Assembly (NCBI RefSeq): GCF_958295425.1
Contig: NC_081136.1
Coordinates: forward strand, 7,561,594 to 7,625,593
DNA length: 64,000 bases
Source: Solea solea
Taxonomy: Eukaryota > Chordata > Actinopteri > Pleuronectiformes > Soleidae
Direction of reading: 5' to 3'
Position numbers and translations under genes: made by a program. Under the pieces are notes generated by a model, which worked only from the letters and a program-made list of their open reading frames with translations, had not been told where the DNA came from and searched no databases. This document shows positions 18,543 through 47,317 of this stretch, piece after piece (positions within the stretch are counted from its first letter, which is position 1; every line of letters begins with the position of its first letter).

Positions 18543-18642
18543 CTTTTTCTTGTTGGTTGGGCAGATGTAGAAACTGGTCACCACAATGGTTGTGCCTGGC
18601 ATCAGGTTGAGTTTAGTGTAGGTGGTTCCGTAGTCTGAAGAC
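18543..18642 (-). CDS. sorcs2: sorcs2-like internal exon B (VPS10 Asp-box)
   Basis: Internal coding exon, 100 nt on the minus strand: one G that completes Arg, then 33 codons ending in phase 0. The peptide begins SSDYGTTYTKLNLMPG and ends FYICPTNKKK. SSDYGTTY fits the Asp-box (S-x-D-x-G-x-x-aromatic) found in blades of the VPS10 ten-bladed propeller. Acceptor: a long pyrimidine run, then CTGCCATTCAG, with a textbook CTAAC branch-point candidate about 35 nt upstream. Donor: AAG|GTAGGA at 18542-18537. SorCS2 carries TKLN-x-x-PG followed by FYICPTNK at this place, whereas SorCS1/3 carry a YLYVNPTNKRK version (family knowledge, recalled), so SorCS2 is the best call. The next downstream exon, expected to start with a hydrophobic ILVSS-like strand, was not found below 18543. 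Confidence 0.92.
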
Positions 18643-19279
18643 CTGAATGGCAGACAGGAAAAAAAAAAGGCAGACAGTTAGTCTGGAAATTTTTTTAAAT
18701 GAGAAGATAGTTCCTGCTCATTTCCCTTTTGCAATGGTCTCCCGAATCGCCCAATATCAGTGTGGAAGTGCATTATGGTAATGGCTTAGAGAATAGGACC
18801 TGTTCACAGTTCATTAGATTTTACAACTATTGTGGATTCTATTTCACCAAAGCTCAAATTGAAGTGACAGCAGCTACACGAGGAACCTTCACGCTGACAG
18901 AAACAGATTAAATCTGCAAAAACGCTGAGGAAGGGCAACCTGCTTCTTTTCCTAACCTGCCCAGAAGGCCTTATATCAGCTCTGTGTTCACTATATTACC
19001 ACTTTGTGGTCTGAGTTTGGTGACAAATCAAAAATGGCTGGACAACCTGTCATTGCCACAACGATGCAAAAACAGCCTCAGGCCAGCAATGAAGTACTGG
19101 CCAGTGCTGAAATCTGTCAACTTTAGGAGCAGGTACCAAGTGCTGTGTTTGTCTGAGATTGATAACTCGCTGCTGGACTGTTTCAGCAGCCCGTCACAAT
19201 CTCTGTCTCACTCAGGAGGAAGAGTGAGGGTGACAGGTTTCCACAGGTTTCCAAGAGCGTAAATGAATCACCATTTTTG

Positions 19280-19692
19280 AGCTGGTCACCAGCATAGACC
19301 AGCATTTTGTTGTGTTTTGGTGCTGGTCCAGCATTATGCTGGTCTATGCTGGTCTTTGCTGGTCTATGCTGGTCCATATTGATCCAGCAGCATCATTATG
19401 CTGGTCTACGCTGGTTCATGCAGGTCTATGTTGGTCTATGTTGGTCTTTGCTGGTCTATGCTGGTCCATATTGATCTATGCTTGTCTATGCTGGTCCATG
19501 CAGGTCTATGCTGGTCTATGCTGGTCTATGCTGGTCCATATTGATCTATGCTGGTCTATGCTGGACCAGCAGCATCATTATGCTGGGCCATGCAGGTCTA
19601 TGTTGGTCTATGCTGGTGTATGCTGGTCTATATTGATCTATGCTGGTCTATGCTAGACCACCAGCATCATTATGCTGGTCTTTGCTGGTCCA
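19280..19692. repeat. minisatellite, 10-bp unit TATGCTGGTC
   Basis: About 35-40 degenerate copies of TATGCTGGTC (variants TTTGCTGGTC, CATATTGATC, CATGCAGGTC), with three higher-order interruptions containing CCAGCAGCATCATTATGCTG. GCTGGTCACCAGC at the left edge is a perfect palindrome, and GACCAGCA in the interruptions can pair with the units. It lies 640 bp from the exon B acceptor inside the large intron. One plus-strand frame stays open through the array only because the unit lacks stops. Confidence 0.95.
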
Positions 19693-20261
19693 AAGTAAAT
19701 TGAACAAGCTCAGAAGAGGTTGTATTTTGAAGTTTCCACTGTGCAGTTTTCTTTCTTAGAGTTAATTTTAAAATCAATCTCAAAGCTCACAAGAAACTAA
19801 ATGCAGCAGCATTTAGTCAGACGGTTGAGGGTTCAACAGGAGGGATCCAAGAAGCAGAGGTGTTGATGAAATAGAATGACAGGACAGCACGTCAGATTGG
19901 TTAAGGACGAGAGGATTTACTCCTTCGCACAGTGGGGGCATCAACCACAATGAGACACAGACACAGCTAAAGCCCCTGCCAGGCCATTCAACACACCAAG
20001 AGTGCTCGATTAAAGCTGGAAAAATTGGAGTGGCATAGCAGGGGTTAGCTACTTCTCTGCGCTGCGATGACAAGTGTTTTCATCTTTCAGCTTGCTGGTT
20101 TAGATGCATCGTTTCACCGCGGATCACTTGGAGGACACGGGCTGATGTAGAGCTGATGCTTTTGTTACCTACTGGAGCTCAGCGCCGGTCTTAAAACCAC
20201 AGAGGACTGGGACCTGGTCCAAGGATGGTAATAAACATGACATATTTCTGCCTATCTCTGT
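19693..20261. other. unassigned intronic stretch
   Basis: No gene or clear repeat. Confidence 0.4.
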
Positions 20262-20495
20262 CAACCAATGATTACCTTCATGACCGATTAATCTTTTGAT
20301 TAATGATTGACCATAATATGTAAAAAAAAAATAATAATTGAAAGAAGAAAAATGTTAATCCGTGTTTTCCCAAGCCTCAAGACAAGATTAATGTCATAGA
20401 GGAGCAAAAAAAAAGTACACCATATTCATATTTAAGAAGCTGCAATCAGACAAACAGACAAATACTCATCAGTTAATAAATGAATTGTTGCAGTA
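20262..20495 (+). repeat. dispersed repeat, GATTAATCGATTA family, copy 3
   Basis: Starts TCAACCAATGATTACC / GACCGATTAATCTTTTG and contains ATATTCATATTTAAGAAGCT, then GCAATCAGA. It ends GAATTGTTGCAGT. Same order as 836-1108. Confidence 0.65.
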
Positions 20496-23400
20496 TGTAA
20501 ACGCTGTATGTTAAAGGGTCAAAGTGGCTATCATGGCATAGCATAACTGCATGCAATAAATGTATTACTTACTGCAAATGTTTGAAGTTGCATTTGTTTC
20601 CTGTTTTAATTGTTTTATTGACGATGATCAAAATCAGCATGCATTTGGACCTTCATTGCAAAGTGTGCTCTGGTTTTAGCTTCGCTTTGGTCACCGCCAA
20701 CCATCCAGCACGGATAATATGAGGCACTTAAGCATTCAGACACTAAATGCTGCCGTTAACTTTGTCAAATGTTGGACATTCTGGGAGTTTATCAGCTGTT
20801 GATGATGTAAAGTGAGTTATATTTTTCACGTAACTATTAGTGCAGCTTTAACGGTGTCAGAAGTGAAACCAGTGGCTTCCCAGGATGGAACAAAACAGTC
20901 ACAAACACTCTCCTATGGAGGCTGAAATGACTTTACCCCTCAGATATAGACAAACGGTTGAATATTCTTTTAACTAATAAAAGTATAATAGATACATACG
21001 GATAAATCATCACATGATTTCACTTTCATACAAAGCACGGTAGGCGCATGTGTACTTTCACTGCTGTATTGCTGGATTATGTGGTAGAAACCAATGATAA
21101 TCTCCGCTTGACACAGATGTCGGCAAAGCCTTCCTGCCATTTACATGTTCACAGTCGTTCATTAGCTGTAGTCTAATCACTGGCCATGGTTGGAGTGGGC
21201 CTTTTGCCCAGAAAGACGTTTCAACACCTGGATGCAGAGTATTCACCCTTCATGTCTCGTCTGTACTCGATACCTTCACGACCCTGCTAACTCCCCATGA
21301 CTAAAAAAAAAATACAAAACGTGTTAGTTTTTGTAAAAATATTAAAACCCTAGTGACTCTTTTAGGCTGTGGTGGTAAATCATGTGGAAAAAACTAAGTG
21401 AAAGATGTTGGGGAATCACCGAGAGAAGTTGGGTAGTTGAGTAATGGAAGGATGTAATGCCACTAATAAGGCTAATTTGAGGTTTGGATGGAGGTTACGG
21501 CAGAGAGTCGGCAGCCCGAGCACCTTCTATGGCAAGAATAATGATGTGGAGTTAAATGGAGAGCCCGTTTTTGCAATGCAGACTTTTGGATTAATAGACT
21601 GCTAAGGAGTTATTGTAGATTAATGAGAAATAATTAGTGGTTAAATGGCAGGAGTTGGATGAAAAGGTGAATCAAAAGTATTCTATTAAACTCAACGTAG
21701 CCCTCAATCAGGTAATATAGTGTTTGGCTGTAGAAGGAAATGTTATACTGCTTCTGTGTGGAAGTGGAATGGAGCTAAAGTGAAAACCTATAATATCTTC
21801 TACATACATACCCTCAGTATCGAATAAATGAGTGATTCTGATACCAACAACTGAAACTGAGAGCATAAATCATGAACGATAAGGTTAAAAAATAGGAGAG
21901 GAACAACGAGACAATGGAACGGGAGGGTGGAGAATGTGGACACGGAGGCGTCTGTGAGAGCAGATGTGACAGAGGCGAGAACTGCGCGGGTGAAATTGCA
22001 TTTTCCGTGATGTGCTTGAGAACACAAAGAAATGTGGAGGCACTTTAGGGCAGCGACAGGTGCTGATACAGATTTAATGTCCTAATATGTCAGGGTAGCT
22101 CCCAGTGTCTGACGCCTGAAAGGAAGACAAAGCTCGAGAGGTCGGGGGAACATGTGATGAGGTATACAGAAATACAGAGAAGTGGAGGGATGGGATTTGA
22201 GTAAAAATGTTATAAATCGTTAAATTGGACTAAATCAATAGCATGTATGTATTATAGGTTTGTTGTTGATGATGCTTGAGTTAGGAAAACTCAAGATACT
22301 ATGTGTAGATGGGCTGACTGAGTATTTATATGCGTAAATTGAGTGGTACGTTTATTGTACATTAGAAACAATGGATAATAATGGATAAACAATGGATCAT
22401 CATACAGGCTCAAATGCAACCGACAGCAAACGCGAGGTGAATGTGTCTCGACATGTCCATTTCAGCTGGAAGTCAAACACTTGACAGACAGCGTCAGTCT
22501 GAATCAGGGCAAGTCAGGTAGACGGCGAGACGGTTGTGCCTGCCCGCGGAGACTCGCACAAATGCCCCCGGGGGCCCGACTAGAAATTGGAAGGCCAATA
22601 AGATGGAGGATCGAGCTTCAACCGCCTGTGGTGAATATGTCAGAGCTCTCGATTATCCGCGCCTGTGTTAGCGCCGCCACAGAAAAATGATTTATTATAC
22701 ATGACACTGACAATCCTGATGAGAGTGACACTCAGCGGGGTTATTAGCTGCGCACCACACAAAAAAAAAATCTGTGTTGAGTGGGTGAACCTCGGGTCAC
22801 AGTAATCTAAGCTTTTCACATTTTTCTTTTTTGAAAGAGTAGGGGAATTATCACAAGACGGGAGTGTTTGATTTATGACCGTACAGGTAATTGCCGTGAC
22901 TAGTGTTAAAAATGACTGCGGAGAGTGGGCCACCGTCGCCGTTAAAGCTTATTCACAGTTGTTAAAAGCAAAACATCGTAAATACCACCTGCTCCACAAC
23001 TGTAAACCAGAGGAAAACACTTTAATGACAGAGATCGGAGATGAGGTATGATGCTAAGAAAAGAAAGGCATGTGCATCCATCTGCCTCCCACATGGACAG
23101 GTCATCAATGTTGACCTCTGTCTGGCTCGCATCTTTTCTTTTAAAAAAATGACCATTCTGCTTGACTGCATCTGTTTTGCACAGACCTTGGTCTGAACCA
23201 CCCGTTTATTTTTTTCCTTCTCCTTGCAGCTGAGCGTTGGTTACAGTTGACAAAGCTCAGAGAGTCTCAGGTGGGCCCTGGACAAAGGCTTTATGGCCAT
23301 CTGCTGTGGGCTGATTGTGTCGAAGCCCAACTTTATTGACAACGTAATGAACTGTAAAATGATACAACATGGCTTCCAGAGAGACTGACCACACGCTGCC

Positions 23401-23997
23401 AAGAGAGAAGCTGCAGGAAAGTTGAGCGAAAACAAGTGCTCTTGCTAGACACTGTCCTTTTAAAGACTTCTGTGGCCCTTTGATGACAGCCACAATGTCA
23501 GACGACTGATTATTAACACAAAGCCTGAAAGTGTGAATGCGCCTCAGCTGTGAAAGCCTCTAAAAAAAAGAAAAAGGCAGCTTGGCAGAATGAGGTGTGA
23601 ATAAAGTGTCGATGGGGAAAAGGCAAAAGGACAAATGGTCAACTTCTCTCGCCCTCCGGGTGACAGTAGCAGAGGTGTCTGCCACGTCTCAGGGAAGACG
23701 TCACAATTCACAGTGTCTACAGAAAGGTGTTGAGGTTGAGACGCTAATGGCACAACTATAGACCAAAGAGAGAGTGGACGCTAGGCATTCAATCTTCACC
23801 CCAAGTCCAACCAGTTGACAAGATGTGAGGTCAGATGAGATTCGTTATCCCCATGGTGTTTTATTTATTAAAATCCAGACACAGAAAGAACTTTCCTTTT
23901 CCCACAGCATTGTTTAATGTTTAATTTACTGTTTGTGGCGCTGTAACACAAGCACAGAAATACACCTAAAACTGAGATAAAGATGTGGAAGTTGACT
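20496..23997. other. unassigned intronic stretch
   Basis: 3.5 kb with little repeat content: unique-looking sequence with ordinary AT content and only short chance frames. It includes several TAAT-rich blocks (21540-21640, 22380) and a T-run at 23205. Possible regulatory content cannot be shown from one sequence. Confidence 0.4.
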
Positions 23998-24167
23998 AGG
24001 GATGGGAATTGGATCGGATATCGGACGGATAAAATATGATACAATCCAAAAATCGTATTTGTTGCATGCTCCACTATGCATAGGCCTTAAAAGTGTAAAT
24101 AAATGCTCTAAAATGACTGTATCAGACCAATGTTGGTATCAGTAGTGGTATTGTCCCATCCCTACTG
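23998..24167. mobile_element. MITE with TAGGGATGGGA inverted ends
   Basis: TAGGGATGGGA at the left and TCCCATCCCTA at the right are inverted ends about 11 bp long. The interior has GGATCGGATATCGGACGG and GGTATCAGTAGTGG, a layout familiar from short hAT-type elements in fish. 170 bp, no coding capacity. Confidence 0.75.
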
Positions 24168-24950
24168 TTTACAAACTCCAAACGAAAGAAGACGATGATG
24201 CATATGAATGTCCTCCAGGACCCGTTTGTCAAAAACAGCATGTTAAGGACATCCAAACCACCGAATAGAAAAGCCAATATGATACCAAACGTTTGGGGAT
24301 GATCCTAAAGATGGTCTTTAAAAGAGCTGCAGTTATAGTCCAACTTTCTCGTGGATGACTGAACTACTTGATATGAACATCCAGACACCCCACCAAGGAG
24401 ACAATTTCTTTAATTAGTGTTTACGAGACCTCAAAATGATGTCCTCAAAAGTCTCTTTTGTCCACGAGCCCAGAATATTCAGTTGACCGTCATATAGGGA
24501 ACACATTCGAGGCTAAATCAAAGAACTTGTTTCATTTTCTTTTCAATATAACTTAAAAACAGTTGTCAAAAACTTTGGGGCGATAGTTTTAGCGCTCCAT
24601 CACTGATCGATTAATCATTAAGTGTTGCAGCCCTCGGCTTCACTAAATCATTCTTTTAATGTGAACATCAGAGACTCCCCACTGCTCATCAGCATTCCCC
24701 GTCCTCTCTCTCTTTCTCTCACACACATCTGTCACTTCCGGACAATTGCAGGGCACACTGTGGATCGTGAGCCCCGTCTGTCCCTTTACCACTCCATCAA
24801 CATGCCATTTGCGACGCCAAAGGACCTTGTAGGAATCGGCAGATAATTCACTGTACGGTCTTTTTAAAAGTAGCTCTGATCAGAGGTGTCAGTCATGCAC
24901 ACTTACACCCACTTCTTCAACACCTACAAAAACAAAAATAGAAATCCTGT
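24168..24950. other. unassigned intronic stretch
   Basis: 24598-24637 (ATCGATTAATCATTAAGTGTTGCAGCCC split over the block) is a terminal fragment of the GATTAATCGATTA repeat family. Otherwise nothing recognised. Confidence 0.45.

Positions 24951-24981
<31 letters not shown>
24951..24981. repeat. (AC)n(AT)n microsatellite
   Basis: ACACACACAT followed by about 10 TA units. Confidence 0.95.
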
Positions 24982-25846
24982 AAACACAAGTACCAGGAGA
25001 AATAACCACAGTCCCTGGATCTCAGCAACAAAACAATATGGCTCTCCCAGTGAGCATAATTAGCAGAAGCGGAAACTGGAATCCTTGAAGAGAACTCAAT
25101 CCTGCTGCACACAACTAAGACCCGTCAGTGTGAACAAAGAGGACCTGCATATATTAATAATCAATTCCAAGTCATTTAGCTTGCATTGGAAATAAAGCAA
25201 TACTTGGCCTTTGTTCTGAATAACCACCACATTTAACGAGGCACGGGAAAGCCGGGTGGTGGCACTGATGACTACAACTGCACAAAAATCACTATGTAAT
25301 AATAAAAAAAAAAAAAATAGGAAGGTACTTGTTAAGAAGTGGCATTATAAGGATAAGCCACAGCTGTTATGATAAGTATCTTTCTATTACGTTGATCACT
25401 GTTTCCCAAAACTCAAAAGGATAACGTTCCTATTCTCAGTACAAAGTTCCACATTTTCAAATGTATTAGTCAACAGACTACATATATTCCGTTAACTGTC
25501 ACAGAAGAGCCAAAGAAGCCGATCATTACTTTGTTTGACTACTTGTTTGACTCATCACATTGAATCAGTCAGTGTGTTTTTAAGACAAAATTTACTTGTT
25601 TTAAAATGTGTTTACTATTTTACACTCTCTCATGGAACGCGTTGTTACTTTCTGTCACGAACATGAAAGGAAGTCGCGTTCCGCTCCGATAAAAACTTTG
25701 AACTGTCTTTGATAGCTTTGAATTGCCTTGGGATAACAAGAGGAGGATACTGAGGAGATGAAGAGTTGGAAAGAGGTACCTGGAACTGCGATAAAGAACA
25801 TCGATGTGTGGATTGAGAACTTTGAATTGCAGTGAGGAGCTAGTGG
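24982..25846. other. upstream region of the CXADR-like gene
   Basis: AT-rich, with a 13-A run at about 25304. 25640-25846 could be part of a 5' exon if the donor at 25933 is used. No TATA box in a convincing position was identified. Confidence 0.35.
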
Positions 25847-25933
25847 ATGGCAGCATTGCACTTCTCAGTGTGCAGCCCGCCTGGAAATTTTGAGAAGACG
25901 ACGTCGTGTCACTCAACTTCCCTAAGAGCTAGG

Positions 25934-26208
25934 GTGAGATTCATCTTTCCACAGATGGATGTGGTGTTGATTTTGGTCAATTGCTTGAGTTACAAAGTCA
26001 TTTTCCTCAAAAGTGCAAAATAGATTTATGGTGTCCTGGGGTAGCAAACTCTACATGCTCGTGTCTTCTAATAATAGTTCAAGTAGGCTGTATACCAAGT
26101 GAATGTAGATGGTAATCCGCAAACTGTCTTTGAACTTTAAACTTTCTCCACATTAAAGTCAAGATTCTTAACTGTTAATGTGTTAACTGACCAATGCTTT
26201 ACTTGTAG
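25934..26208 (+). other. possible 5' intron of the CXADR-like gene
   Basis: The sequence reads GCTAGG|GTGAGA at 25933/25934, a strong donor. At the other end CTTTACTTGTAG finishes at 26208, directly before the ATG, with TTAAC/CTGAC branch-point candidates about 20-25 nt upstream. Removing these 275 nt places A at -3 of the ATG, a better initiation context than the unspliced TAG. It also joins an open frame that begins at an ATG at 25847 in phase with the main ORF (29 extra codons). RNA evidence would be needed; this is inference. Confidence 0.4.
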
Positions 26209-27126
26209 ATGCCGATCCCCAGAACCTATTGCTTCAGGAAGCGTCATCAAAGACCCCTCATCACCGGGCAGAGGCTATGCTATTTCTGGATTATTGTTGC
26301 TGTGTTGCTTTTAACCTCACAGCCTTCCTACGGAGTACGGATTCTCTCAAACTCATCTACAACCAAATATGCAGCTGTGGGAGACAGTGTGACCCTCAGC
26401 TGTCACTTCGGGCTTGCTCCTGAGGGCTTGGGACACCTCGACATTGAATGGAGTATCAAGCCTTTGAATATCAGCGAAGAGGAAACCACTGTAGCCATGT
26501 GCGTTGATAATCGCACATATGAAGATTATTATCCATTCAAGGACAGAGCCAAGTTTGTGTCTCCTGATCCCGCGAGCGGCGACGCTTCGATTGTCATCAA
26601 AGAGCTGAGACCTACAGACTCGGCCGTCTACCAATGCAAGGTTCGAAAACTCAACAGATTGAGCAGCATTCGCATTAACCTGACGGTAAAGGCGAGGCCA
26701 GCTAAACCCAAATGCTACGTGAAGTCTAAATCGTTGGAGCCTTGTGAGGTGGTACTTGGGTGTACGACAACAGAAGCCAGCACCCCCATACTGTACAGCT
26801 GGGTCAAAGAAAACACAGAGAATCTCCTTCCAGTTGGTGCCTTCGCGGATTCACACAACGGTGACCTGCTCTTAAACCAAGACATCCAGGGAACGTTCGT
26901 CTGTACAGTTCATGGCTCTGTCGGGGTGGAGACGTGTGCAATTGAGCTGGAGTCATGTAACACTGAAGCAAACACAGTGACATTACTCGCTGTGCTCGCC
27001 ATGTTCCTAACCTTTCCCACCGTAGCCATCGTCGTAGCCTGCTGCTATAAAAGAAATGATACGCATTTTGGAAACGAGATCCTGGAAGACTGCTCTCCTC
27101 CCAACAAACGGCTGCTGATGGAGTGA
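26209..27126 (+). CDS. CXADR-like two-Ig-domain membrane protein, intronless
   Basis: Intact single-exon ORF of 305 residues, related to the coxsackievirus and adenovirus receptor (CAR) of the CTX cell-adhesion family. Residues 1-42: basic N-terminus, then a hydrophobic signal segment (about 24-40). Residues 43-160: V-set Ig domain with C65, W81 and C143 in DSAVYQC; LDIEW and DYYP...GDASI are CAR hallmarks. Residues 165-250: C2-set domain with C169, C185, C232 and C243. Their spacings (16, 47, 11) match the two disulfides of CAR domain 2 (16, 50, 11). N-glycosylation sequons at N48, N87, N101 and N157. One membrane span, about 255-277, then a 28-residue tail where CAR has about 107. The expected role is homophilic or heterophilic cell adhesion at the surface; this is inferred. 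CAR is normally split over several exons, so the absence of introns suggests a retrogene. It lies antisense inside the sorcs2 intron. The start is uncertain because TAG immediately precedes ATG and resembles a splice acceptor. Confidence 0.88.
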   Translation: MPIPRTYCFRKRHQRPLITGQRLCYFWIIVAVLLLTSQPSYGVRILSNSSTTKYAAVGDSVTLSCHFGLAPEGLGHLDIEWSIKPLNISEEETTVAMCVDNRTYEDYYPFKDRAKFVSPDPASGDASIVIKELRPTDSAVYQCKVRKLNRLSSIRINLTVKARPAKPKCYVKSKSLEPCEVVLGCTTTEASTPILYSWVKENTENLLPVGAFADSHNGDLLLNQDIQGTFVCTVHGSVGVETCAIELESCNTEANTVTLLAVLAMFLTFPTVAIVVACCYKRNDTHFGNEILEDCSPPNKRLLME

Positions 27127-27130
27127 CTAG

Positions 27131-27879
27131 AATGTGCCGCAATACAATAGAAGTCAGTATATGTAAAAGTAGAAGTCAGTAAATGGAAATATGGAAGTCA
27201 TCACATTTAAAAAGCCAAAATGATGTAATTGTGAATGTTGAAAAAAGTTGAATGTTCTTTTTGTCAATTACTATAAAGCAGGAAAGCAAGATCCTTGAGG
27301 ATAGTGTGTTCGTGAAAACGAGAGATGAAACACTTGCTGTGTCGATGAGGAAGCAGGTTAAAAGTTAAATAATTACTGCACATACACTGACACTGTCAAA
27401 TTGTGCATTTATGTCTTGTTATGTTGTCCATATGACATTTAGGGGCAGGTGAATTTAGTTAACTGAAGCAGATAGTGTGTAAAAAGATAATATTTGTACA
27501 TGTATATGAGTACTTTAGACGTGGGCAAAGATGAGAAAACAGGTACAAAGTTAACAGAATCATGAAGCTCATACTGACGTTATCAAACTGCACTGCTCTT
27601 GTTATTTTCCATTCAATATTGTTTAATAAAATGACATTTGGTTGTTCAGAGGAGACTTGTGTTTCTGTTTTTTTTGGGAAATAGTGATGAAAATAATATG
27701 CAACCGCTTAGTGTCACTGGAGATATATTTTTATTCCCATGAAAGACATGGTCACTGTTATTGTTTTATTAAAGGTTCTGTGTTTTACTTCTCAAATCTT
27801 TGAGTCATGCACAAATCTTTTTTTTTTTATATTACATATAATGGTGAGTTATCAAGCCATAAAGTAGTTCCATATTCTG
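27131..27879. other. 3' UTR of the CXADR-like gene and spacer
   Basis: 27127-27650 is the predicted 3' UTR, with a short AGAAGTCAGTA(T/A)ATG duplication at 27149-27187. Beyond it lies AT-rich spacer with a T10 run at 27819. Confidence 0.45.
27625..27630 (+). terminator. polyadenylation signal AATAAA of the CXADR-like gene
   Basis: Canonical AATAAA about 500 nt after the stop codon, followed 27-50 nt downstream by a GT/T-rich stretch (TTGTGTTTCTG then T8). This predicts a 3' UTR of roughly 0.5 kb. No poly-A tract of the kind left by a recent processed insertion follows it, so the copy is either old or a normal gene. Confidence 0.55.
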
Positions 27880-27994
27880 ACTGGCGACCTGTCCAGGGTG
27901 TACTCCACCTTTCACCCTGTGCCACCCAGGATTGCCTACAGTGACATATATATATACACACATATATACACGTGTATATGTATATATATATACT
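27880..27994 (+). repeat. L2-like tail plus (TA)n array
   Basis: CTGGCGACCTGTCCAGGGTG TACTCCACC...CACCCTGTGCC is the conserved 3' region of fish L2-type elements. It is followed at 27944-27994 by a TA/CA array with a quasi-palindromic centre (ACACGTGT). Confidence 0.75.
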
Positions 27995-28314
27995 GTAAAT
28001 CTTTCCAAATTTCAATAACTAATTCCAATACTTAAAAAATCTGTTCAAAGGCGATTGATGACATAATGACATCATCTGGTGTCAATGAACTTAAAAGCTT
28101 CCAGCAGCAGAAACATTATGGATGCAGACTGCCGTGAAACACCCGAGTAGTAGAAAAAGAAGGAAAGCGCAAGAATAAAAGGAAAAAGACATTCGTACAG
28201 CTTGCTGTAAATGATCATTCTTAGAAGATAACCACTTTGCGAAGCACTTCAACCCAGCTCAGACACAGACTTTACATAAAGTGAGTTCAACACTATTTGT
28301 ACCATTAAAAAGAA
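27995..28314. other. upstream region of the coiled-coil ORF
   Basis: Probably 5' UTR or promoter. It contains a short upstream ORF beginning ATGGATGCAGAC at about 28119 that stops after 11 codons. No TATA box certain. Confidence 0.35.
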
Positions 28315-29133
28315 ATGGAAGACTCTACATACATGCACCTGAATACATGGGCTACAAGACAGCCCAGAGGTTTAAGAAAGGACCACTACATGCAAGGACA
28401 GGCACAACGTCAAGAAAATAGGAATCACAACAGGAAGCCGCCCAAATACCTCGAGGAACTACACTGGAGAATCCGACTTTGCCAAGAGTTGAGGGAGACA
28501 AGGCGACAACTGGCCAAAGAGAAGTCCTTAAAAGAAATTTACAAGAAAAAGGAAAAAGAAACGCGACAGGAGCTCGAGAGGCTGCAGAAGTACAGCAGCA
28601 CGGAAACTCTTCATGCCACAAAGACTGCCGATATTCTGGTGAGCAAAACCACCAAGAGGAAGAATTCAGACCTTTATAAAAATTGCAAAATCAGCGTGGA
28701 CAACTTGAAGTCTGAGCTCCAACAAGAAAAGGAGAAAAACATAGATCTCCAAAAACAACTGGACACACTGTTTCTGCCAATATACGCTAAATACCCAGAG
28801 GTCATGCTGCATGCCAGTGACCTCCAGGATGACATAGGCGAGGTAGATGTGGCTGATGCAGACATACTGGCCAGAAACTTGCAACTGGTCCAGAACTTGA
28901 GGTCCAGTAAGGAGATCCAATATCAAAAGATGGAGGAGGAGCTGAAGTCTAAGAGGGAGAGAAACAAATGTTTCCAAGAAGATATGGAGGGGCTGAGAGC
29001 TTCATACCAAAGGATCCTCACAATCAGTGAGCCTGCAGACAGACTTGAGTCTGAGCCAGAGGAACAAGCCATGTCTGATGCAGAACTTAATCCAACACTT
29101 GAGAATGAAGCAGGAAGCTCTCCATTAGTCTGA
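28315..29133 (+). CDS. unrecognised coiled-coil protein, single exon
   Basis: Intact 272-residue ORF that I do not recognise. The start ATG has a strong context (AGAAATGG; A at -3, G at +4). Residues 1-45 are polar and basic. Residues 45-95 (EELHWRIRL to LERLQK), 117-152 and 184-235 are rich in Glu, Lys, Leu and Gln with heptad-like spacing, which suggests three coiled-coil segments separated by short breaks. Residues 152-183 form a less charged, then acidic linker (LFLPIYAKYPE, DDIGEVDVADAD). The last 35 residues are acidic and disordered-looking. No signal peptide or membrane span, so probably cytosolic or nuclear. It lies 1.2 kb downstream of the CXADR-like ORF on the same strand, inside the sorcs2 intron. 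An ORF of 819 nt with a highly biased composition in AT-rich DNA is unlikely to be chance. It could be a retrocopy of a multi-exon coiled-coil gene; the parent is unknown. Confidence 0.7.
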   Translation: MEDSTYMHLNTWATRQPRGLRKDHYMQGQAQRQENRNHNRKPPKYLEELHWRIRLCQELRETRRQLAKEKSLKEIYKKKEKETRQELERLQKYSSTETLHATKTADILVSKTTKRKNSDLYKNCKISVDNLKSELQQEKEKNIDLQKQLDTLFLPIYAKYPEVMLHASDLQDDIGEVDVADADILARNLQLVQNLRSSKEIQYQKMEEELKSKRERNKCFQEDMEGLRASYQRILTISEPADRLESEPEEQAMSDAELNPTLENEAGSSPLV

Positions 29134-29701
29134 TCCCCCCCAAGACCATAATACCAGTGTTTCCCCAACATGTTATTTAAGGACCCACAAACTATTGAAA
29201 CTATTCTGGCCCAGTTCACAATGAAAATGTTTCATATTAATCTGACTGTTACCGCAAAAATAACACCTAAATATGAATATTATTTTTGAATAGATAACCC
29301 AATCATAAAATAATTTTATGCATGACATTAAATACATCTAAATGAAAGGCCCCTAAATAGAATACAACCAAATACTAATATATAGAAATGTAAAATAATT
29401 ATACCGTGTGTACAGTATATACTATATATATTTTATATAACATGTGAAAAAGTACAAAAAGGCTATAATACCATTGTAAAAGTTAGGCCAGAATCATACT
29501 TTCTGTGTCTGTGAGTCTGCAGAGGTACGTTAAGGTAAATGTTGTCAACCTCTCGCAGCAGTGTGTGCATGTATGCTATACAAACGTACGCAAGCATCCG
29601 TTCTCTTTGTGATATATGGCCAAGTACTCAACTGACTCCACATGTGGCACTTTCCACTCCAGTTATTTCTCTTCTGGCCAGAAAAGAGACTACAAAGAAG
29701 G
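29134..29701. other. AT-rich spacer after the coiled-coil ORF
   Basis: AT-rich to 29460 (TATATATTTTATATAA at 29425), then sequence of ordinary composition with no recognised gene. Confidence 0.4.
29327..29332 (+). terminator. possible ATTAAA polyadenylation signal of the coiled-coil gene
   Basis: Variant hexamer ATTAAA about 195 nt after the stop codon at 29133. No AATAAA occurs until about 30175. The surrounding sequence is AT-rich, so chance occurrence is quite possible. Confidence 0.25.
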
Positions 29702-29747
29702 AGGCAATCACGGACACTTGGCGAGGTCCAAGTGTCCGTGATTGCCT
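29702..29747. repeat. perfect 20-bp inverted repeat, 6-nt loop
   Basis: Arms 29702-29721 and 29728-29747 are exact reverse complements (starting AGGCAATCACGG and ending CCGTGATTGCCT), with loop CGAGGT. Pairing does not extend past the arms. Too short for an ordinary miRNA precursor; could be a hairpin-forming inverted duplication. Confidence 0.95.
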
Positions 29748-30363
29748 GAAGAAGACTTTAATTTGTATTATGAACAGAACTGCAGCCACTTACACGTAGG
29801 CCTCAGTGAGAGGCTAAAAATGACAAGCGACATCAAACAGCCACAGGGTCACAGATATTTGTCACCTGTACAGATGTTAGCTGACAACCTGCTTACAACA
29901 CTGTTCATTTTCTATTTTCTTTGGGGTTAATCTTGGTAAACTCTCACTCCTGTGTTACAATAAGGTTTAGCTTCACATAGACACACAGTCTACCTGAAAT
30001 GAAACAATTAAGTGCCAAAATAATAATCATTCAAACATCAAAGCCCAATCCATTTCTAGGTCAACTGGGGTTAACAGGCGACTACTTGATGATTTTTCTT
30101 CATAGTTTAAATCGACTTTATTCAATCGCTTCTAAACAAACAAACCAGGCATATTTCAGTCAATTTAAATAGTAAATAAACAAATGACCATAATAACAGT
30201 ACAAACTGGAACATTTCATCGGTGTCCTCAGTTGTCTGACTTTTATGTCAGTGTTCAGCAACATAATATGTCTTTCATATCATGACACCAAAGCCACAGA
30301 GAATGATCCGTCTCCACAGAACTGACCAAAAAGGACGCTCGGCAGCCTCAATCCAGCTGCTAA
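29748..30363. other. unassigned intronic stretch
   Basis: AT-rich. AATAAA at about 30175. No gene recognised. Confidence 0.4.
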
Positions 30364-30602
30364 GGGGAACATAGAAGGCCAATTGGCAATGGGTACAGAG
30401 ACTCAGCAAGCGAAGGCAAAACAGGAAGACCAACAAACAAGTGGAACACATGAAGACCAGAAAGGGAGGCTAAAAGGGACACGCAACGCTCAGCAAGAAC
30501 CACGGAGTGTGCCGGACACAGCAAGACCGACAAAAATGGGGGATGGAGGACATGGAAAGTTCAGCAGGTGAAGGGGACATGGGAGATCCAGCAAGTGAAA
30601 AA
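30364..30602 (+). repeat. purine-rich degenerate tandem array
   Basis: Repeating blocks of the form GGGACA(T/C)GGRAGNTCAGCAAG with spacing about 24-50 bases (for example ACTCAGCAAGCGAAGG, CGCTCAGCAAGAACC, GAAAGTTCAGCAGGTGAAGG, GAGATCCAGCAAGTG). The plus strand is strongly purine-biased. One frame is open for 62 codons, without a recognised product. Confidence 0.6.
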
Positions 30603-30984
30603 ATGGATAGGCTTCATGTTGGCGATTGTTGCACTTCAAGTTCAGGCATGGCATGGCTTCTGGTTGATTAATCCACACTATCCTTTTTCTATATTTATTA
30701 TTTCCCATATTATTTATTATTTCCCAATTCCACAGACTGACAGTGCATGGGTTTTCAAGGGACAAAAGATCCAGACGGGTGGGTAGAGGAAAACAGTATC
30801 TGAGTATTTATAATGGAAGTGGAAACAGCAGTAGGGACAGACAGACTTCAACAGCCAACGTTTTCTCTAGAGTCTGTGCAAAGGACAGACAGGATGAGGC
30901 ACTACAGAGAAGAAGCAAAGAACAAGACGAAAGAAGTTGGTATCATCAACATCGAACTAGAGCCCAAGATTAGGCTGCAAGTTG

Positions 30985-31050
30985 TATTCATTTTATTTAA
31001 CCTTTGACTTACTAGGAAGTCACATTGAGATAAAAATACCTTATACAGGT
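30985..31050 (+). repeat. dispersed fish repeat, TTTATTTAACCTTT type
   Basis: CATTTTATTTAACCTTTGAC, then AGGAAGTCACATTGAGATAA, resembles an abundant fish interspersed repeat (ATTTAACCTTTATTT...CCATTGAGAT). Recalled, not searched. Confidence 0.5.
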
Positions 31051-31605
31051 TGCCAATAAAAGCAGTAGCATCATATGTATGATTGGACAACAAACTGCAT
31101 TAGAAAGCAAGTATGATGTAATATCCTATAGATAGACATAGCACAAGGAAGTAATAATTAGGCAATCATCTGTCTGCAACACTGAGGAAGTCATCAGAAA
31201 AAAAACAACTAGGTTGAGTGTCATAAAATAAAACATTTAAACAAAAAGAAGTTGTGGGCTGTTCAATGCTCTTTTTATGAGAGTAGAATATCTGTTATAT
31301 TGTGTTTATTGCTGCTATGACGAGTGGTGTAATCTACGGGATATGCAGGTACACGCCGTATACCCACTTAAAAATGTGCAATTTTTTGCAATTAAAATTT
31401 GGGGATGTTGGGCTCAACACACTTGACCGTCACACCTAACAAAGTACTGCACGTTAATGCATCACAGTTATAAGTTATTTTGGTATTGTTCCCTAATGGA
31501 AACGCATACAAACAATACAATAGACCACACTATGGTGCAGTAGACCACACTACACAACTGTTTTGGACCAACAGTTAAGAGACAAATGTCTAAATGCAGA
31601 CAGTG
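31051..31605. other. unassigned intronic stretch
   Basis: AT-rich. ATAGACCACACTA occurs twice at 31520-31552. No gene. Confidence 0.4.
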
Positions 31606-31760
31606 ACTGGCTGAGAAGAAAGGAATTAGGCTTATAACCCGGAAGGTCGCTGGTTCAATCCCCGGACAGTGCTGCCTACTATGGTGTGTAATAAGTATTG
31701 GGTTTAATGCAGAGGACTAATTCACTTTCACTAATCGTTATGGGCACAGAAATGAATAAT
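31606..31760 (+). mobile_element. tRNA-derived SINE, copy 1
   Basis: A Pol III B-box is seen as GGTCGCTGGTTCAATCCCC, preceded by a degenerate A-box region, followed by GGGTTTAATGCAGAGGACTA, a body motif common in fish SINEs. Diverged and without a clear tail. Confidence 0.7.
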
Positions 31761-34680
31761 TCTAATTCGATCACATTGTGGGACAAAATATGACAATGTG
31801 TGGCATGAGAGGACTGTTTTCTTGCTTGCTCAACATTTCAAAGTGTTGCGAGATGGAGTTCAAAGCCGGTTTTACTCGGTCTCTTTCTCCTGACTGAGAT
31901 TAAACACTTCTTAGAAGCTTCTCCTCAGTCTTCCAGCTGTAATTTGGTTAAGCCGTGACTCAACCTTCCGTACAAAGACGCCCTAAACCCCCCCCCCCCA
32001 CTCATGCACTTCCATGCAGCATCCACGCTGAAATCCTCCGTCCATCCATGTCCCAGCTGAATCGAAGGAGAGCGGGCAGTAAATGGGAGACATTTATCTC
32101 GATGGCATCCCAATCTGTATCTTTGATGACATGCTCCCTGAACACACACACACTCCTGGACATGAGGCAATAGTGTGCTTGTGTGCAGTCGAGTCTGTTA
32201 GATTTTGTATTTTATGTGTCAGAGTTAGAGTGAGCAGCAAGAAGCAGACAAAAGGAGCAAATCTGCCCACTGAACTTGGCTGTGAATTCCTAAACAGGCG
32301 AAGCTGTTCACAGCCAGGATAGCAGCTACAGCCTCTTCTCTCTCTCCCTCTATGTCTTTGCCATTTCAATCAATCTATTCTACAGATGATCCCATCACCC
32401 TCTCCACACGTTGTTTGATGTCTACATAACCTCACATAGACAGGGACGCACGCACGCACAACAAGTACAAAGACAAAGGGATGCTGTTTAGCTTAATTGC
32501 ATTTATTGCGACAGATGTCTCTCTCTTCCTTTTCCTCAGGCTTATGGAAAATGCTCATCACTCTCGGGCGGCAAAATTCCACGACTGATCTCATACGGAT
32601 GATTAAAAAGAGACAACATGCTCGTAAATTAGAGCTCTAATGCTAATGCTCTAAGAAGGGTTTCGCTGTTTTTCCTGCTTTAAAGGCAAGTTACTGGCAT
32701 GAAGCTAAGTCAAGAGGAGTAAGTGAAGACGAGTACAGAACCTATATGATCATTTTCAAAGGCAAACCCTATGTTTTACATTGAAGACAACGCTCCCCGC
32801 GTGAATAACAGCCATGACGCACTGCACACGCAACCAAGTGTGGCCCGGGCTCATCAGTTTGATTAAAGGCAACGGATCCGAACCCCTCTCCATCACCCGA
32901 TTCCCCCCCCCCCTGCGGCTCCTGACATCAAAGAGCGGCAGGCTGCTGCGGTCCCACCTGGCGTGGAACCGTGCGCGGCTCCATGCTGAGAGCGCGCTCG
33001 CCAAGTGCCGCGGGGCATCGCCGCGGAGAGGCCAACACCGCTGCCTCGCTCTCAGTGATCAAGAGCACAGACGTGGATGTTTAAAGACAATGACACGTCT
33101 CATCACCAGAGACCTTCACTAATGAGTGGGATATGATGCCATGCGGAAACAGGGGGCTCAGCAGTTTTCTTTTTTTTTAAGGATTCAGACTCAAACACTA
33201 ATTGAATTAATTATGAATTTATGATACTAATAAAAAACAGCCTTTATAGGTATTTTTGCCGCATAGGTTCAGGTCTGTTCGGGGCTTTAATGTCCCTCAA
33301 GGGGAAATTTGTCTTGTGTCGGTGCAAAAACATCTGCAAAATAACAATTGTGGTTGCTTGTCGCCATAAAATTAAAGAAAAAACCCTTACCTTAACTCTA
33401 AATCCCTACGGATTTTATAAGAATAACTACTATAACTATATATAGCGGCGTAGTAAACGAGTAACAGCTTCTTCTTCTTCTGCGATAAACCAAACCTTTA
33501 CTCTTAAACTCCAGCATTTTGACCTTTGTCTTCAAGAAGGAGAGGCCTGACGGGATTATCATACGCCCACACATGCCTGGAGGTCAGAGGTCATCCCTCA
33601 CGGGAGAGACGCCACGCGCCAAAGTCAGGCAGACCAATTCATCACAGTAAGCGACTGTGACAAGATCCAGAGACTAATCAGCCGTTACGGATTGCCGTTA
33701 GTTTGACTGTCCCATAATCTGGAGTTTACGGCGATGTGGTCAATAAGGACTGGAATCTGAAATCTCAGTGTGATTGGAAGATTTTTATGAATGTTTTGAT
33801 AGTGGTGTGTATCATTAGATAGTAAATCAATGTAAATTGACAGCTTTTTTTTTAGAATAATTTCACAGAAATGATGCCTTTACTGCACAAATAATGTAAT
33901 TGACTTTGCATTTATGTCATATATTGATTGGTTTCAAGGAAAACAAAAACAAACAACAGGAGACGATAGATCATTTACATAATTTTGCACCAATCCATAT
34001 CATCAAACAAACACTGGAAATGTTTCACGTTGCCTACCTCACACGGAGAGCGAGGCAGATGGCGGCTTCAGTAAGTGAGCTGATAACACCAGTGAGAAGC
34101 GAGCGGCTTCCCAGGAGGCCGAGCGGCACACTGCTGCGCGTTCTCATCTCCTAATCATCTGTCACCCCCCACACTCACACACTCACTCCTACACTCTTGT
34201 GTACATTAAATTCCGTTCTACACTTCAGATATCGGTTGCAATCAGTCACATTTACTGTAAATCAACACAAGACTGAGCGGTCGTGTGATTTGATCGGGTT
34301 CACCCCAGGTTTTTCCAGCACATCCATCTATGCTTTTCTGAGGCGCTGACACCTCCATGCATCACGATAAAGCACATACATCTTTTTGATAAATAAAATG
34401 CAACCGGAACGGCTCCTAAATGTCTAAATGTCACACTGCAATGAACGTGTTTACAGGCCAATAAAGCAATCCCAACTCACGGGGCGATCTTTATTGCATG
34501 GCGCCTGCGTTCAGTGGGAGCAGATTGTGTGGTTGTGAGGGTGCTGGAATCCACGAAGCCCGGCTATTAATATCTCTCCGAGTTGAGATGCCATTAAAAC
34601 ACTGCTGGAAGGATTTGACCTAACGCTGGCAGGGGGCGCTAGTGGCAGAACAGCAGAAAAGAGACATTTTCATATGGACT
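31761..34680. other. unassigned intronic stretch
   Basis: Contains C-runs at 31987-31999 and 32903-32913 and, at 33285-33322, TTTAATGTCCCTCAAGGGGA AATTTGTCTTG, which resembles a fish repeat. 32800-33060 is CpG-rich with chance frames on both strands. 34000-34150 and 34480-34640 look unique. No gene. Confidence 0.4.
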
Positions 34681-34695
34681 GTGTGTGTGTGTGTG
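34681..34695. repeat. (GT)n short microsatellite
   Basis: Seven GT units. Confidence 0.85.
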
Positions 34696-35112
34696 GTTGA
34701 TAAGACACAGTGACTGCAGTGGAGTGAGACTGGAGCGGCCAGGCTCATACATAAGTCAAGGTCCCAGCGTGGGAAGCAAAACGTCTTCTATCGTTTGCTT
34801 CACTTTGACATACAAGGCTGTGATGCAAGACTTTCCCTCTCTATCCTCACAGAACAGTGACTTTCATTTTTATATTTCTGGAGAAAATTGTCCTGTTGAG
34901 GACACATATCCATTTTTATTTTTTGTTTTATTACTATTATTATTATTGTTTTTATTGTTTCTCTTTGTCACCTGCAACCAGGTATGATATCAGCTGTCAG
35001 TCACACTGGTGTCGACTCGTCCTCTTCATGGGAACACCATTTTAACTAAGTGACATAAATGTTCCATATGAAGTGACTGAGACCATCAACTGCACAGGAA
35101 AATGCTCACTGA

Positions 35113-35240
35113 TGTTATAACTAGGGCTGTCAAAGTTACCGCGATAAAAAGTTGGTTAACTTCTGGTGAAATGCACCCTGTCATTAGAAGAGTCACTAGA
35201 AGGAAAGCAACATTTTTAATCGTGATTAATCTAGATGAAC
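35113..35240 (+). repeat. MITE remnant, TAGGGCTGTCAAAGTTA
   Basis: TAGGGCTGTCAAAGTTACCG CGATAA...GTTGGTTAAC and AATCGTGATTAAT match the end of a short hAT-like element common in fish. The other end is not clear. Confidence 0.55.
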
Positions 35241-35329
35241 GAATTTCAAAATGTGACATGAATTATTAGTCGTCAAGTGAGAATAGGCTCATATATCCAT
35301 AGACGTTCCATTCAAGTTCTTTTTTTTCC

Positions 35330-35460
35330 AACCAACAGAGTCGCCCCCTGCTGGCTATGCACTACATTCTTACTTCCTGACTGTCTTCATCAAGGAAATT
35401 GGAAGATTCCATACATTGTATGTTGTTCCTCCCCTCATTACTGCCAGTTAAGGCTTAACG
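35330..35460. repeat. possible fish repeat with CGCCCCCTGCTGGC
   Basis: CAGAGTCGCCCCCTGCTGGC followed by TATGCA resembles an interspersed repeat frequent in fish. Short and uncertain. Confidence 0.35.
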
Positions 35461-35557
35461 TGGAGCTGTCCATGGTGCTGAGGATTTCCCTCCACTGCTG
35501 CCAGCAGTGCAGATCTTGGTGGTAGTAGCAAATATTCAAACGAGAACTTTAAAACGA

Positions 35558-35559
<2 letters not shown>

Positions 35560-35591
<32 letters not shown>
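35560..35591. repeat. (TA)n microsatellite
   Basis: 15 uninterrupted TA units. Confidence 0.95.
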
Positions 35592-35595
<4 letters not shown>

Positions 35596-36544
35596 CATTT
35601 AAATTCAAATGTGTCCACGTTTGCTCGCCCTTGGCTAAATGTGCCGCTGCTGTTCACCGGACCCAAAAAGAGGCGGCGATCTCATTTGTGTAATTGCATT
35701 TAAAAGCGCACTTGCCTCCTCATCGGACTCGCGGACATATAATGCCCTAATTTGCCGACAGCAAAGTTTCTGCTGTGTGAAGTAATAAGATAAAGAGAGT
35801 TGTTGGCACGGGATCAAAAGTGACATCAACTGATGGGACAAGACGCATCCATCCCGGGAAGTATAAATCAGACGGGAGAGTGCGGCATGTGAAACTACGC
35901 CGGCGAGGAGGAAGAGAGAGGAGGTCAAGAACCTCGAGACAGAAAAGCGCTAAAAGTGAAGACATGGATCATCACAGAGCAGGAAGAGAGAGACACGGCC
36001 CACGGGGGAGAACCTGCGGTGAGGATGTGAGCGTGGGCAGGGAGGTCAAACAAACACGTTAGCACACTAAAAACTTATGTCCAGATAGAGAGAAGGAGAT
36101 CAAACGCAGCTGCAGTTGTCTCATCGCGCTGTAATGTACTGGTAAATTTGTGCAGGTTCAACAAACAGTCAACCAAAACTAACATCTACTTTCATCCAAA
36201 AACAGTCATTTGCAATTACAGCAATGTATTCCTGCTTTAAAAATGGGATTTTTATAAAAAAATACATAATTAAAATCCCCAAAAAACAGCTCGATCATCT
36301 CCACTATGTCTATATTTTATGTCTAGAAGCTCATTATCACGATACATAAGTGTCAAGCGGGTCGATAATGAACTATCAAATGATAATATTCCAGAAAGTT
36401 GAAGATCGATGTTTGGTTGAAGGATCTAAAAGTATATAATTCGCAGAGTTCCGCCATATGGATTACCATATATTCAACCCTCTTATGACCGTCAAGATAA
36501 TGAGGATTTGGATTTATATTGATTTTATGGCTGTAGAATTGTCA
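35592..36544. other. unassigned intronic stretch
   Basis: Purine-rich plus strand at 35880-36050, with short chance frames. No gene. Confidence 0.4.
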
Positions 36545-36630
36545 AATAAATGTTGATGATTGAGTGCTTTTTTTCCAAGATAAAAATAGTCACTTTTGAT
36601 ATCTGGCAGTTATTCAACCGTTGAGGAATT
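36545..36630 (-). repeat. dispersed repeat, AATAACTGCC block, minus copy
   Basis: The reverse complement aligns with 17128-17225 (CCTCAACGGTTGAATAACTG, then CCAGATATCAAAAGTGA, ATCTTGGAAAAA). Confidence 0.7.
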
Positions 36631-36687
36631 AAGGCACTAAGAAGGTGACGTCACAAACAAACAAGTATTCCTTGCTTTCTGGTATCC

Positions 36688-36722
36688 ATCCATCCATCTC
36701 CTACCGCCTTATCCTCACAATA
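36688..36722 (-). repeat. L2-like tail, minus orientation
   Basis: ATCCATCCATCCATCTCCTA, then CCGCCTTATCCTCAC, is the reverse complement of the GTGAGGATAAGGCGG / GGATGGATGG tail. Confidence 0.65.
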
Positions 36723-37004
36723 GTCCATAGTTTTTGAATTTTCTTGACATCACAAATGGTCCAGGAGTTACGGTAATGAGAAGCGTGCATGTCCCAATGC
36801 ATGTAGACGATTCTGAATGAAATCATGAGGGAAAACAGAATTCAAAGAGATTCATACAGTTTACTCGCTCACCTGCGTGTATCTGTTTATTAAACATGGC
36901 AGGTTCTCTTAGTCCGTCACTTCACTTCTTTTTAATGACTCGCTGCTTGAATCAACACAGCAGACCACAGCAAAACCACTGATGGCAGGGTTAACACAAC
37001 ACAA

Positions 37005-37215: not shown

Positions 37216-37445
37216 AGTTTGTGTTTTGTGCATGTGCGTCTTCACCTTGTGTTCCCTCTGACCTCTAAATCATCCGAGGTGTTGAATCAAGCCACAGGAG
37301 GCCTCGGCTGTGCGCATGTTAATGTGTGACTTTACATTCGTCATATATGCAAAATTTTATTTTAACACGTACAGTGTTCATGGATTGTGGATCAATGACA
37401 GGCAGGGTCTCCTTTAAGGTCCACAAACGTGTGTCTGTCTATGAC

Positions 37446-47291: not shown

Positions 47292-47317
47292 GAATATATA
47301 TTTATATATATATGAAT

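What the first reader, a model, noticed from the sequence alone, without database searches (positions are those of the whole stretch)
26209..27126. Intact intronless CXADR-like receptor gene nested antisense in a sorcs2 intron
The ORF encodes signal segment, V-set, C2-set, membrane span and short tail without a single intron, whereas CAR-family genes are split over several exons. CAR-specific features are retained (LDIEW, DYYP, GDASI, and cysteine spacings 16/47/11 in domain 2). An undamaged 305-codon frame after loss of introns implies selection, so this may be a functional retrogene with its own role.
Basis: partly seen in the sequence, partly recalled or inferred. Interest (0 to 1): 0.8.

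Follow-up and report, generated by a model that had tools for sequence, protein, structure and literature searches.

The report
Single-exon CAR-like gene inside sorcs2
The common sole carries, inside a large intron of another gene, an intact relative of a well-known cell-adhesion receptor gene whose coding body has no introns; it belongs to a little-noticed family of such genes in spiny-rayed fishes and is probably an old, working retrocopy.

Summary
The ORF at 26209-27126 (+) is real: 305 codons with signal segment, V-set, C2-set, membrane span and 24-residue tail in one exon. It is 100% identical to an NCBI protein of Solea solea named coxsackievirus and adenovirus receptor homolog. It lies antisense in a 45-kb sorcs2 intron; both flanking sorcs2 exons were found. 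"Without a single intron" needs correction: the NCBI protein adds 29 residues encoded upstream of a 275-bp gap with GT..AG ends, so the gene probably has one 5' intron. It is not the sole's CXADR, a separate protein (36% identical) on a contig of chromosome 4's length. Two trees put it in a clade of CXADR-like proteins of spiny-rayed fishes, outside CXADR (100/99; 100/100). Neutral drift would have put stops into the frame (0 of 300 simulations clean at 46% identity), so selection for a protein is likely. Best reading: an old CXADR-derived retrogene (or cDNA-mediated intron-loss copy) encoding a CAR-like surface protein without the PDZ-binding tail. dN/dS and expression could not be tested.

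The parts
26209..27126 (+). CXADR-like coding exon, 305 codons plus TGA
   Evidence: 100% identical to NCBI protein of Solea solea P0002
25847..25933 (+). upstream exon: its 29 in-frame codons (MAALHF...LRAR) are in the NCBI protein; possibly really 5' UTR
   Evidence: in-frame stop TAG at 25841-25843 two codons before its ATG
25934..26208 (+). 275-bp 5' intron implied by the NCBI protein, GTGAGA...TTGTAG
   Evidence: tblastn aligns the MSCLQ-VPIPRS start of a Scatophagus relative across the intron end; splicing itself not observed
26209..26334 (+). N-terminal basic extension and signal segment, residues 1-42
   Evidence: helix 20-36 in model; MPIPR/MPIS-type start shared with P0003, P0017, P0020
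26335..26694 (+). V-set domain 1, residues 43-162
   Evidence: domain limits set by me
26695..26952 (+). C2-set domain 2, residues 163-248
   Evidence: conserved cysteines 169, 185, 232, 243
26965..27051 (+). membrane span, residues 253-281
   Evidence: helix 253-282 in model
27052..27123 (+). cytoplasmic tail of 24 residues, NEILEDCSPPNKR then LLME end; no GSIV-type PDZ ligand, no YxxM
27625..27630 (+). possible polyadenylation signal AATAAA about 500 bp after the stop
63709..63776 (-). sorcs2 exon upstream of the host intron
18543..18642 (-). sorcs2 exon downstream of the host intron; joins the previous one as AG|G (Arg)
18643..63708 (-). sorcs2 intron (45,066 bp) that holds the CXADR-like gene on the opposite strand

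Best explanation
This is a working protein-coding gene, descended from CXADR by an RNA-mediated copy (or cDNA-mediated loss of the inner introns) in an ancestor of spiny-rayed fishes, now nested antisense in a sorcs2 intron and probably transcribed with one short 5' intron. Its product is most likely a type I membrane glycoprotein at the cell surface that binds itself or another IgSF protein through its V domain, as CAR does. Unlike CAR it lacks the long PDZ-binding tail, so it would adhere or compete for ligand without tying to PDZ scaffolds. Shown: frame, domains, predicted fold, nesting, separate CXADR on another contig, clade membership. Inferred: selection, retro-origin, use of the 5' intron, translation start at MPIPR, surface location, adhesion, and the decoy-like role of the short tail.
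For: One exon holds V, C2, membrane span and tail where human CXADR uses exons 2-3 and 4-5 for the two Ig domains (PMC6182664, passages). The sole's own CXADR P0078 is a different protein on a contig of 26,891,628 bases, this gene on one of 37,300,131; these lengths fit chromosomes 4 and 3 of the published assembly (PMC11829150, passages). Clade of 21 rows, support 100/99, apart from 33 CXADR rows; without the VSIG8b outgroup and the longest row, 20 rows at 100/100. Four relatives on short contigs of 1.4-4.3 kb (P0003, P0007, P0012, P0017) carry the Ig domains in one frame, and P0007 and P0012 then run into the same donor-like stretch (RQ|VCNVNVE). 0 of 300 neutral replicates stay stop-free at 46% identity, 3 of 300 at 70%. 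Two V and four C2 cysteines kept. AATAAA about 500 bp downstream. Best Foldseek hit in the PDB is mouse CAR 3jz7, E 7.7e-17.
Against: No target-site duplication in the flanks searched (0 shared 9-mers against a shuffle mean of 2.4). The tail does not match CXADR's beyond NEIxEDxxPP, odd for a full-length retrocopy. Both trees put the clade outside teleost CXADR, although AU tests do not reject an origin inside acanthomorph (p 0.46) or teleost CXADR (p 0.53). The sole branch from the clade base is 0.96 changes per site, against about 0.28 for Solea CXADR summed from the acanthomorph CXADR node of the same tree, and 34 of 88 residues conserved in CXADR have changed, so constraint may be weak. 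No expression or dN/dS data.
Confidence: 0.62

Rival explanations
1. A DNA-level duplicate of CXADR (or of an older related gene) that lost its inner introns, for example by gene conversion with cDNA, and kept or regained 5' and 3' introns. It works like the best explanation but was not born as a retrocopy.
For: Relatives seem to have further tail exons (donor-like read-through after RQ in P0007 and P0012) and the sole has a 5' intron in the NCBI model; a CXADR tail is missing; the clade falls outside teleost CXADR in the free trees.
Against: Location on a different contig from CXADR and absence of introns across V, C2 and membrane span favour a single RNA-mediated step; the 5' intron lies upstream of the start MPIPR, which is not where I recall a CXADR intron.
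Confidence: 0.22
2. A decaying copy: still open by luck or only lately released from selection, with a truncated tail and no function in sole.
For: Tail cut to 24 residues, loss of 34 of 88 CXADR-conserved positions, extra cysteines, 3-residue deletion in domain 2, long branch.
Against: No stop or frameshift in 305 codons, structural cysteines kept, confident CAR-like fold; drift would have put about 4 stops in at 70% identity.
Confidence: 0.13
3. The ORF is the sole's CXADR itself, or an assembly artefact such as a spliced cDNA placed in the genome.
For: It carries a CXADR name in NCBI.
Against: A 375-residue CXADR of Solea exists on another contig at 36% identity; the window gene lies in another clade.
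Confidence: 0.01

Closest known systems
CXADR (CAR), canonical, vertebrates
   Same: V-set plus C2-set ectodomain with four C2 cysteines, single span, juxtamembrane NEIxEDxPP, LDIEW and GDASI motifs
   Different: One coding exon for the body instead of several in human; 36% identity to the sole's own CXADR; no GSIV end; basic N-terminal extension of about 20 residues; faster change; another contig
Unnamed CXADR-like clade of spiny-rayed fishes (Mastacembelus, Scatophagus, Seriola, Trachinotus, Labrus, Mola, Myripristis)
   Same: Same clade, MPIPR/MPIS-type start in several, Ig body in a single frame in those on short contigs
   Different: Several relatives have longer, mutually different tails, four with YxxM motifs; sole has none and branches first in both trees, though on a long branch
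Intron-less teleost rhodopsin
   Same: Old functional teleost gene presumed to come from retroduplication (PMC6650399, abstract start in search listing)
   Different: Another protein family; there the copy took over the parent's retinal role (recalled), here CXADR is kept
Rodent CAR-like soluble proteins (P0061, P0101)
   Same: A CXADR-related side branch with CAR-type V domains
   Different: By my reading of the sequences three V domains and no membrane span, mammalian; relation to the fish clade not tested, independent origin assumed

Membership tests
CAR-type IgSF adhesion receptor | V-set followed by C2-set with four C2 cysteines, signal segment and one membrane span | tested here: met
CAR-type IgSF adhesion receptor | homophilic or heterophilic adhesion at cell contacts | not testable with these tools
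   needs cell-aggregation or binding assay
CXADR orthologue | falls within the CXADR clade | tested here: not met
   separate clade 100/99 and 100/100; the sole has its own CXADR P0078. Constrained placement of the whole clade inside acanthomorph CXADR is not rejected
CXADR orthologue | long tail ending in PDZ ligand (GSIV type) | tested here: not met
   tail ends LLME after 24 residues
Functional retrogene | parental introns absent from the copied part | tested here: met
   one exon for V, C2, span against human exons 2-5 for the two Ig domains; exons of fish CXADR not seen
Functional retrogene | copy on another chromosome than the parent | tested here: met
   contigs of 37,300,131 and 26,891,628 bases, matching chromosomes 3 and 4 by length; assumes CXADR is the parent
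Functional retrogene | target-site duplication or poly-A remnant | tested here: inconclusive
   no shared 9-mer between 25301-26209 and 27561-27950; expected to be erased at this age; poly-A remnant not tested by count
Functional retrogene | nested within the parent's clade in a tree | tested here: inconclusive
   free trees put it outside teleost CXADR; inside-teleost and inside-acanthomorph placements not rejected, p 0.53 and 0.46
Functional retrogene | purifying selection (dN/dS below 1) | not testable with these tools
   no DNA of fish relatives available here; only the stop-free simulation
Functional retrogene | expression | not testable with these tools
   no RNA-seq held; the NCBI protein implies a spliced 5' exon but its read support is unknown

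The most novel reading that the evidence does not exclude
The gene is one member of a family of CXADR-derived, single-Ig-exon receptors peculiar to spiny-rayed fishes that has diversified like paired immune receptors: the ligand-binding part is kept on one portable exon while tails are swapped, from tails with PI3K-type YxxM motifs (three in a Mastacembelus protein, one each in three Scatophagus proteins) through other C-termini to the nearly tail-less sole form, which would act as a non-signalling or decoy partner.
Probability: 0.22. Interest if true: 0.65.

Novelty: new variant of a known kind. Interest (0 to 1): 0.4.

Why it matters
If right, spiny-rayed fishes carry an extra, fast-changing branch of a receptor family that in mammals is both a junction protein and a virus receptor, with the whole ectodomain on one exon and exchangeable tails. 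It gives a natural experiment on what a CAR ectodomain does without its scaffold-binding tail, and it shows that databases label such copies 'CXADR homolog', which can mislead orthology calls. I found no description of it in the listings of searches of the PMC open-access library (one search listed 15 of 163 papers).

Tried and rejected
Orphan-gene and false-ORF readings were dropped after the 100% NCBI match and the CAR fold. A second family copy or tail exon in the window: tblastn of 19 proteins gave nothing convincing outside the main ORF in the output shown (its middle was cut); the lowest E-values elsewhere (down to 2.8e-4) are CVCVC-type microsatellite matches, and the recurrent hit near 37.9-38.05 kb has E 0.06-7.2. 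A tail exon with a YxxM or xxEV end downstream: only weak pattern matches. The sigma-70 promoter scan is bacterial and says nothing here. Rfam: none at gathering scores. Viral relatives: one scan of viral contigs found none; the viral structure matches (50 of 1375 listed) are 9-19% identical and I take them as the common Ig fold. NCBIfam, a prokaryote library, gave nothing meaningful. Pfam on seven other window ORFs gave one sub-threshold hit, DUF2647, E 0.0016. In one search the column headed 'Y motifs' has a position error in my script; only its YxxM column is used. The first tree warned that long branches meet (VSIG8b and the sole row); a second tree without VSIG8b and without the Mola row kept the clade and the first branching of the sole row (98/95), but still warns about the sole row.

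Rows dropped: the first tree used 55 of the 123 proteins held (P0001-P0123); left out were P0002 (contains the query), P0011 and P0026 (isoform, fragment), the rodent proteins P0027, P0061 and P0101, and the rest, CXADR-type entries, for economy. The second tree used 44. The list shows 120 of 452 hits. The 95 'CXADR-type' proteins were grouped by rank and name; 33 were in the first tree. The highest identity in the trees is 46%; the 152-residue fragment P0026 is 55% identical over 45% of the query.

Full report
What is there. The + strand ORF 26209-27126 encodes 305 residues. It is longer than chance gives: 40 first-order Markov sequences of window size had a longest ATG ORF of at most 211 codons, mean 150. 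Pfam finds V-set and further Ig matches. By sequence the best solved structures are CAR ectodomains, E 9.3e-32. An AlphaFold model from 54 sequences has mean pLDDT 85.9, with helix 20-36, two Ig domains and a membrane helix 253-282; Foldseek's first PDB hit is mouse CAR 3jz7, E 7.7e-17, TM-score 0.67 by the target.

Which organism and what it is called. The protein search returns a 100% match to an NCBI entry 'coxsackievirus and adenovirus receptor homolog [Solea solea]', 334 residues, on a contig of 37,300,131 bases. The Solea assembly paper lists chromosome 3 at 37.3 Mb and chromosome 4 at 26.89 Mb (PMC11829150, passages). The sole's ordinary CXADR, P0078, 375 residues, sits on a contig of 26,891,628 bases and is 36% identical over 86% of the query.

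The intron question. The 29 extra residues of the NCBI protein are encoded exactly by 25847-25933, followed by AGG|GTGAGA and 275 bp ending TTGTAG just before ATG CCG. An in-frame stop lies two codons upstream of that first ATG, so the exon may be largely 5' UTR with an accidental in-frame start; nine of 19 relatives have sequence over the N-terminal extension, and P0003, P0017 and P0020 start MPIPR, MPISK and MPISR like the window ORF. Two Scatophagus models (P0006, P0011) read MSCLQ just before VPIPRS; tblastn aligns this to the sole's intron end, and it would fit a pyrimidine tract and CAG acceptor. That last step is my inference from protein letters. The gene is therefore single-exon in its coding body, not proven intronless.

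Nesting. A splice-site scan and a search for the matching donor located two minus-strand exons, 63709-63776 and 18543-18642. Joined in phase (AG|G) they give a 56-residue peptide matching SorCS2 (6ffy) residues 47-102 without a gap, E 3.5e-25; the best non-SorCS2 hit has E 3.6e-05. The exons are consecutive in the protein, so the 45,066-bp stretch between them is one intron, and the CXADR-like gene lies in it on the opposite strand.

Family. A second search with a 10-row profile brought 452 hits at E up to 1e-10, 120 listed. A maximum-likelihood tree of 55 proteins puts the window protein and 20 others in one clade (100/99) apart from 33 CXADR rows, with the sole row branching first (99/92 for the rest). 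The program warned that the long sole row and the VSIG8b outgroup may attract each other; without VSIG8b and the Mola row (44 proteins) the clade has 100/100, the sole still branches first (98/95), and the clade falls on the ray-finned side, beside all 20 ray-finned CXADR rows (98/93, rooted on four lobe-finned rows). Named species in the clade are Solea solea, Mastacembelus armatus, Scatophagus argus, Labrus bergylta, Mola mola, Seriola lalandi, Seriola dumerili, Trachinotus anak and Myripristis murdjan. NCBI taxonomy, looked up for three of them, places Solea and Mastacembelus in Percomorphaceae and Myripristis in Holocentrimorphaceae, all Euacanthomorphacea; that the other six are acanthomorphs is recalled. 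The clade is at least as old as that group if it is one lineage. Mastacembelus, Scatophagus and Seriola have more than one distinct protein, which suggests several copies. AU tests, with groups named after the tree was seen, do not reject an origin inside acanthomorph CXADR (p 0.46), teleost CXADR (p 0.53) or ray-finned CXADR (p 0.38); a union with Solea CXADR alone is disfavoured but not rejected (p 0.10). Long branches leave the exact parent uncertain.

Single exon in relatives. P0003, P0007, P0012 and P0017 come from contigs of 1.4-4.3 kb. P0007 and P0012 end with the same odd stretch RQVCNVNVE where the Scatophagus proteins read RQELKV. I read this as run-on into a shared intron (GTNTGYAAY, donor-like), which would mean that the Ig body is one uninterrupted frame there too and that tail exons follow. 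P0003 shows LGKV, consistent with a GGTAAG donor. This is inference from protein letters; the DNA of these contigs was not available.

Selection. Starting from the sole CDS, neutral substitution down to 70% identity gave on average 4.1 stops and 3 stop-free of 300 replicates; at 60% 0 of 300; at 46%, the best identity in the trees, 0 of 300 with 8.1 stops on average. Indels were not modelled, so this is lenient; but the 46% is shared between two lineages, so 70% is the fairer single-branch figure. GC at third positions is 0.56 against 0.385 in the 1 kb upstream. Two V and four C2 cysteines remain. Against strong constraint: 34 of 88 positions conserved in at least 90% of 33 CXADR rows differ. 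The sole end branch is 0.96 changes per site; the end branch of Solea CXADR is 0.16 but starts much later, and its path summed from the acanthomorph CXADR node is about 0.28 (my sum from the tree).

LDIEW is in 94 of 95 CXADR-type proteins and 10 of 20 clade relatives; GDASI in 70 of 95 and 0 of 20; DYYP in 18 of 95 and 0 of 20. The sole copy thus has two motifs that none of the other clade members examined has, in line with early branching. The 16/47/11 spacing is 16/50/11 in the seven others checked.

Tail. After the span, 15 of the 20 clade proteins share a NEIxEDxPP-like stretch with CXADR and then diverge. Three YxxM motifs occur in the tail of Mastacembelus P0005 and one each in Scatophagus P0006, P0009 and P0016; none in the other 16 of the 20, several of which look like incomplete models. 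The three CXADR tails printed end in GSIV; the sole ends LLME. No convincing YxxM-type exon was found downstream in the window.

How it most likely works. A surface protein with a CAR-type V domain and C2 stalk, five N-glycosylation sequons (four outside; one, at 283, on the inner side), membrane span and short inner tail. CAR's D1 domain dimerises and is the part bound in the solved complexes (titles of 1eaj and 1kac, and established knowledge). Without the PDZ-binding end that probably governs where CAR isoforms go (PMC6182664, passages), this protein would be a less tethered adhesion or competitor molecule. That role is inference.

Origin. Human CXADR has eight exons, with D1 on 2-3 and D2 on 4-5 (PMC6182664, passages). 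One exon for all this on another chromosome points to an RNA step. No target-site duplication was found, as expected for something this old. Fish genomes hold 60 to 142 retrogenes judged functional in five species (PMC3136929, passages), and intron-less teleost rhodopsin is a precedent (PMC6650399, search listing), so the mode is ordinary. cDNA-mediated intron loss remains a rival.

Not in print. The listings of searches of the PMC open-access library showed no paper on a CXADR retrogene, an intronless teleost CXADR or a CXADR-like gene nested in sorcs2 (searches found none; one listed 5 of 5, 49 listed 15 of 163, 50 listed 1 of 1); subscription papers are not covered.

Verdict. Real, probably functional, annotated only as a CXADR homolog and apparently undescribed as a clade: a new variant of a known kind, of moderate interest.

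Noticed in passing
window 28315-29133 (+): A second intact intronless ORF, 272 codons, highly charged and coiled-coil-like by eye, same strand, 1.2 kb after the first. 0 of 5000 random sequences of the same length and dinucleotide make-up stay open, yet no homologue at E 1e-3 (a length-limited search), no Pfam family above threshold and no solved structure below E 0.28. It may be an unannotated gene or part of a larger one.
   Followed up: partly
protein P0005 (Mastacembelus armatus), tail: Repeated cytoplasmic unit with EYVDM, EYVDM and GYMDM plus YDIP and YEIS: looks like a tyrosine-based signalling tail on a CAR-like ectodomain.
   Followed up: partly
proteins P0009 and P0011 (Scatophagus argus): An isoform model (P0011, X3) lacks the membrane span and shifts frame after domain 2; it would be a soluble form of the same ectodomain.
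   Followed up: no
window 26500-26502, 26743-26745 and 26956-26958 (+): Extra cysteines 98, 179 and 250: 98 is shared with one of 18 and 179 with one of 17 clade rows, 250 with none of 19, and none with CXADR; an extra disulfide or dimer bond is possible.
   Followed up: no
proteins P0027, P0061, P0101: Rodent CAR-like proteins that by my reading have three CAR-type V domains and no span, another CXADR side branch; the phrase 'CAR-like soluble protein' is in no paper of the library.
   Followed up: no
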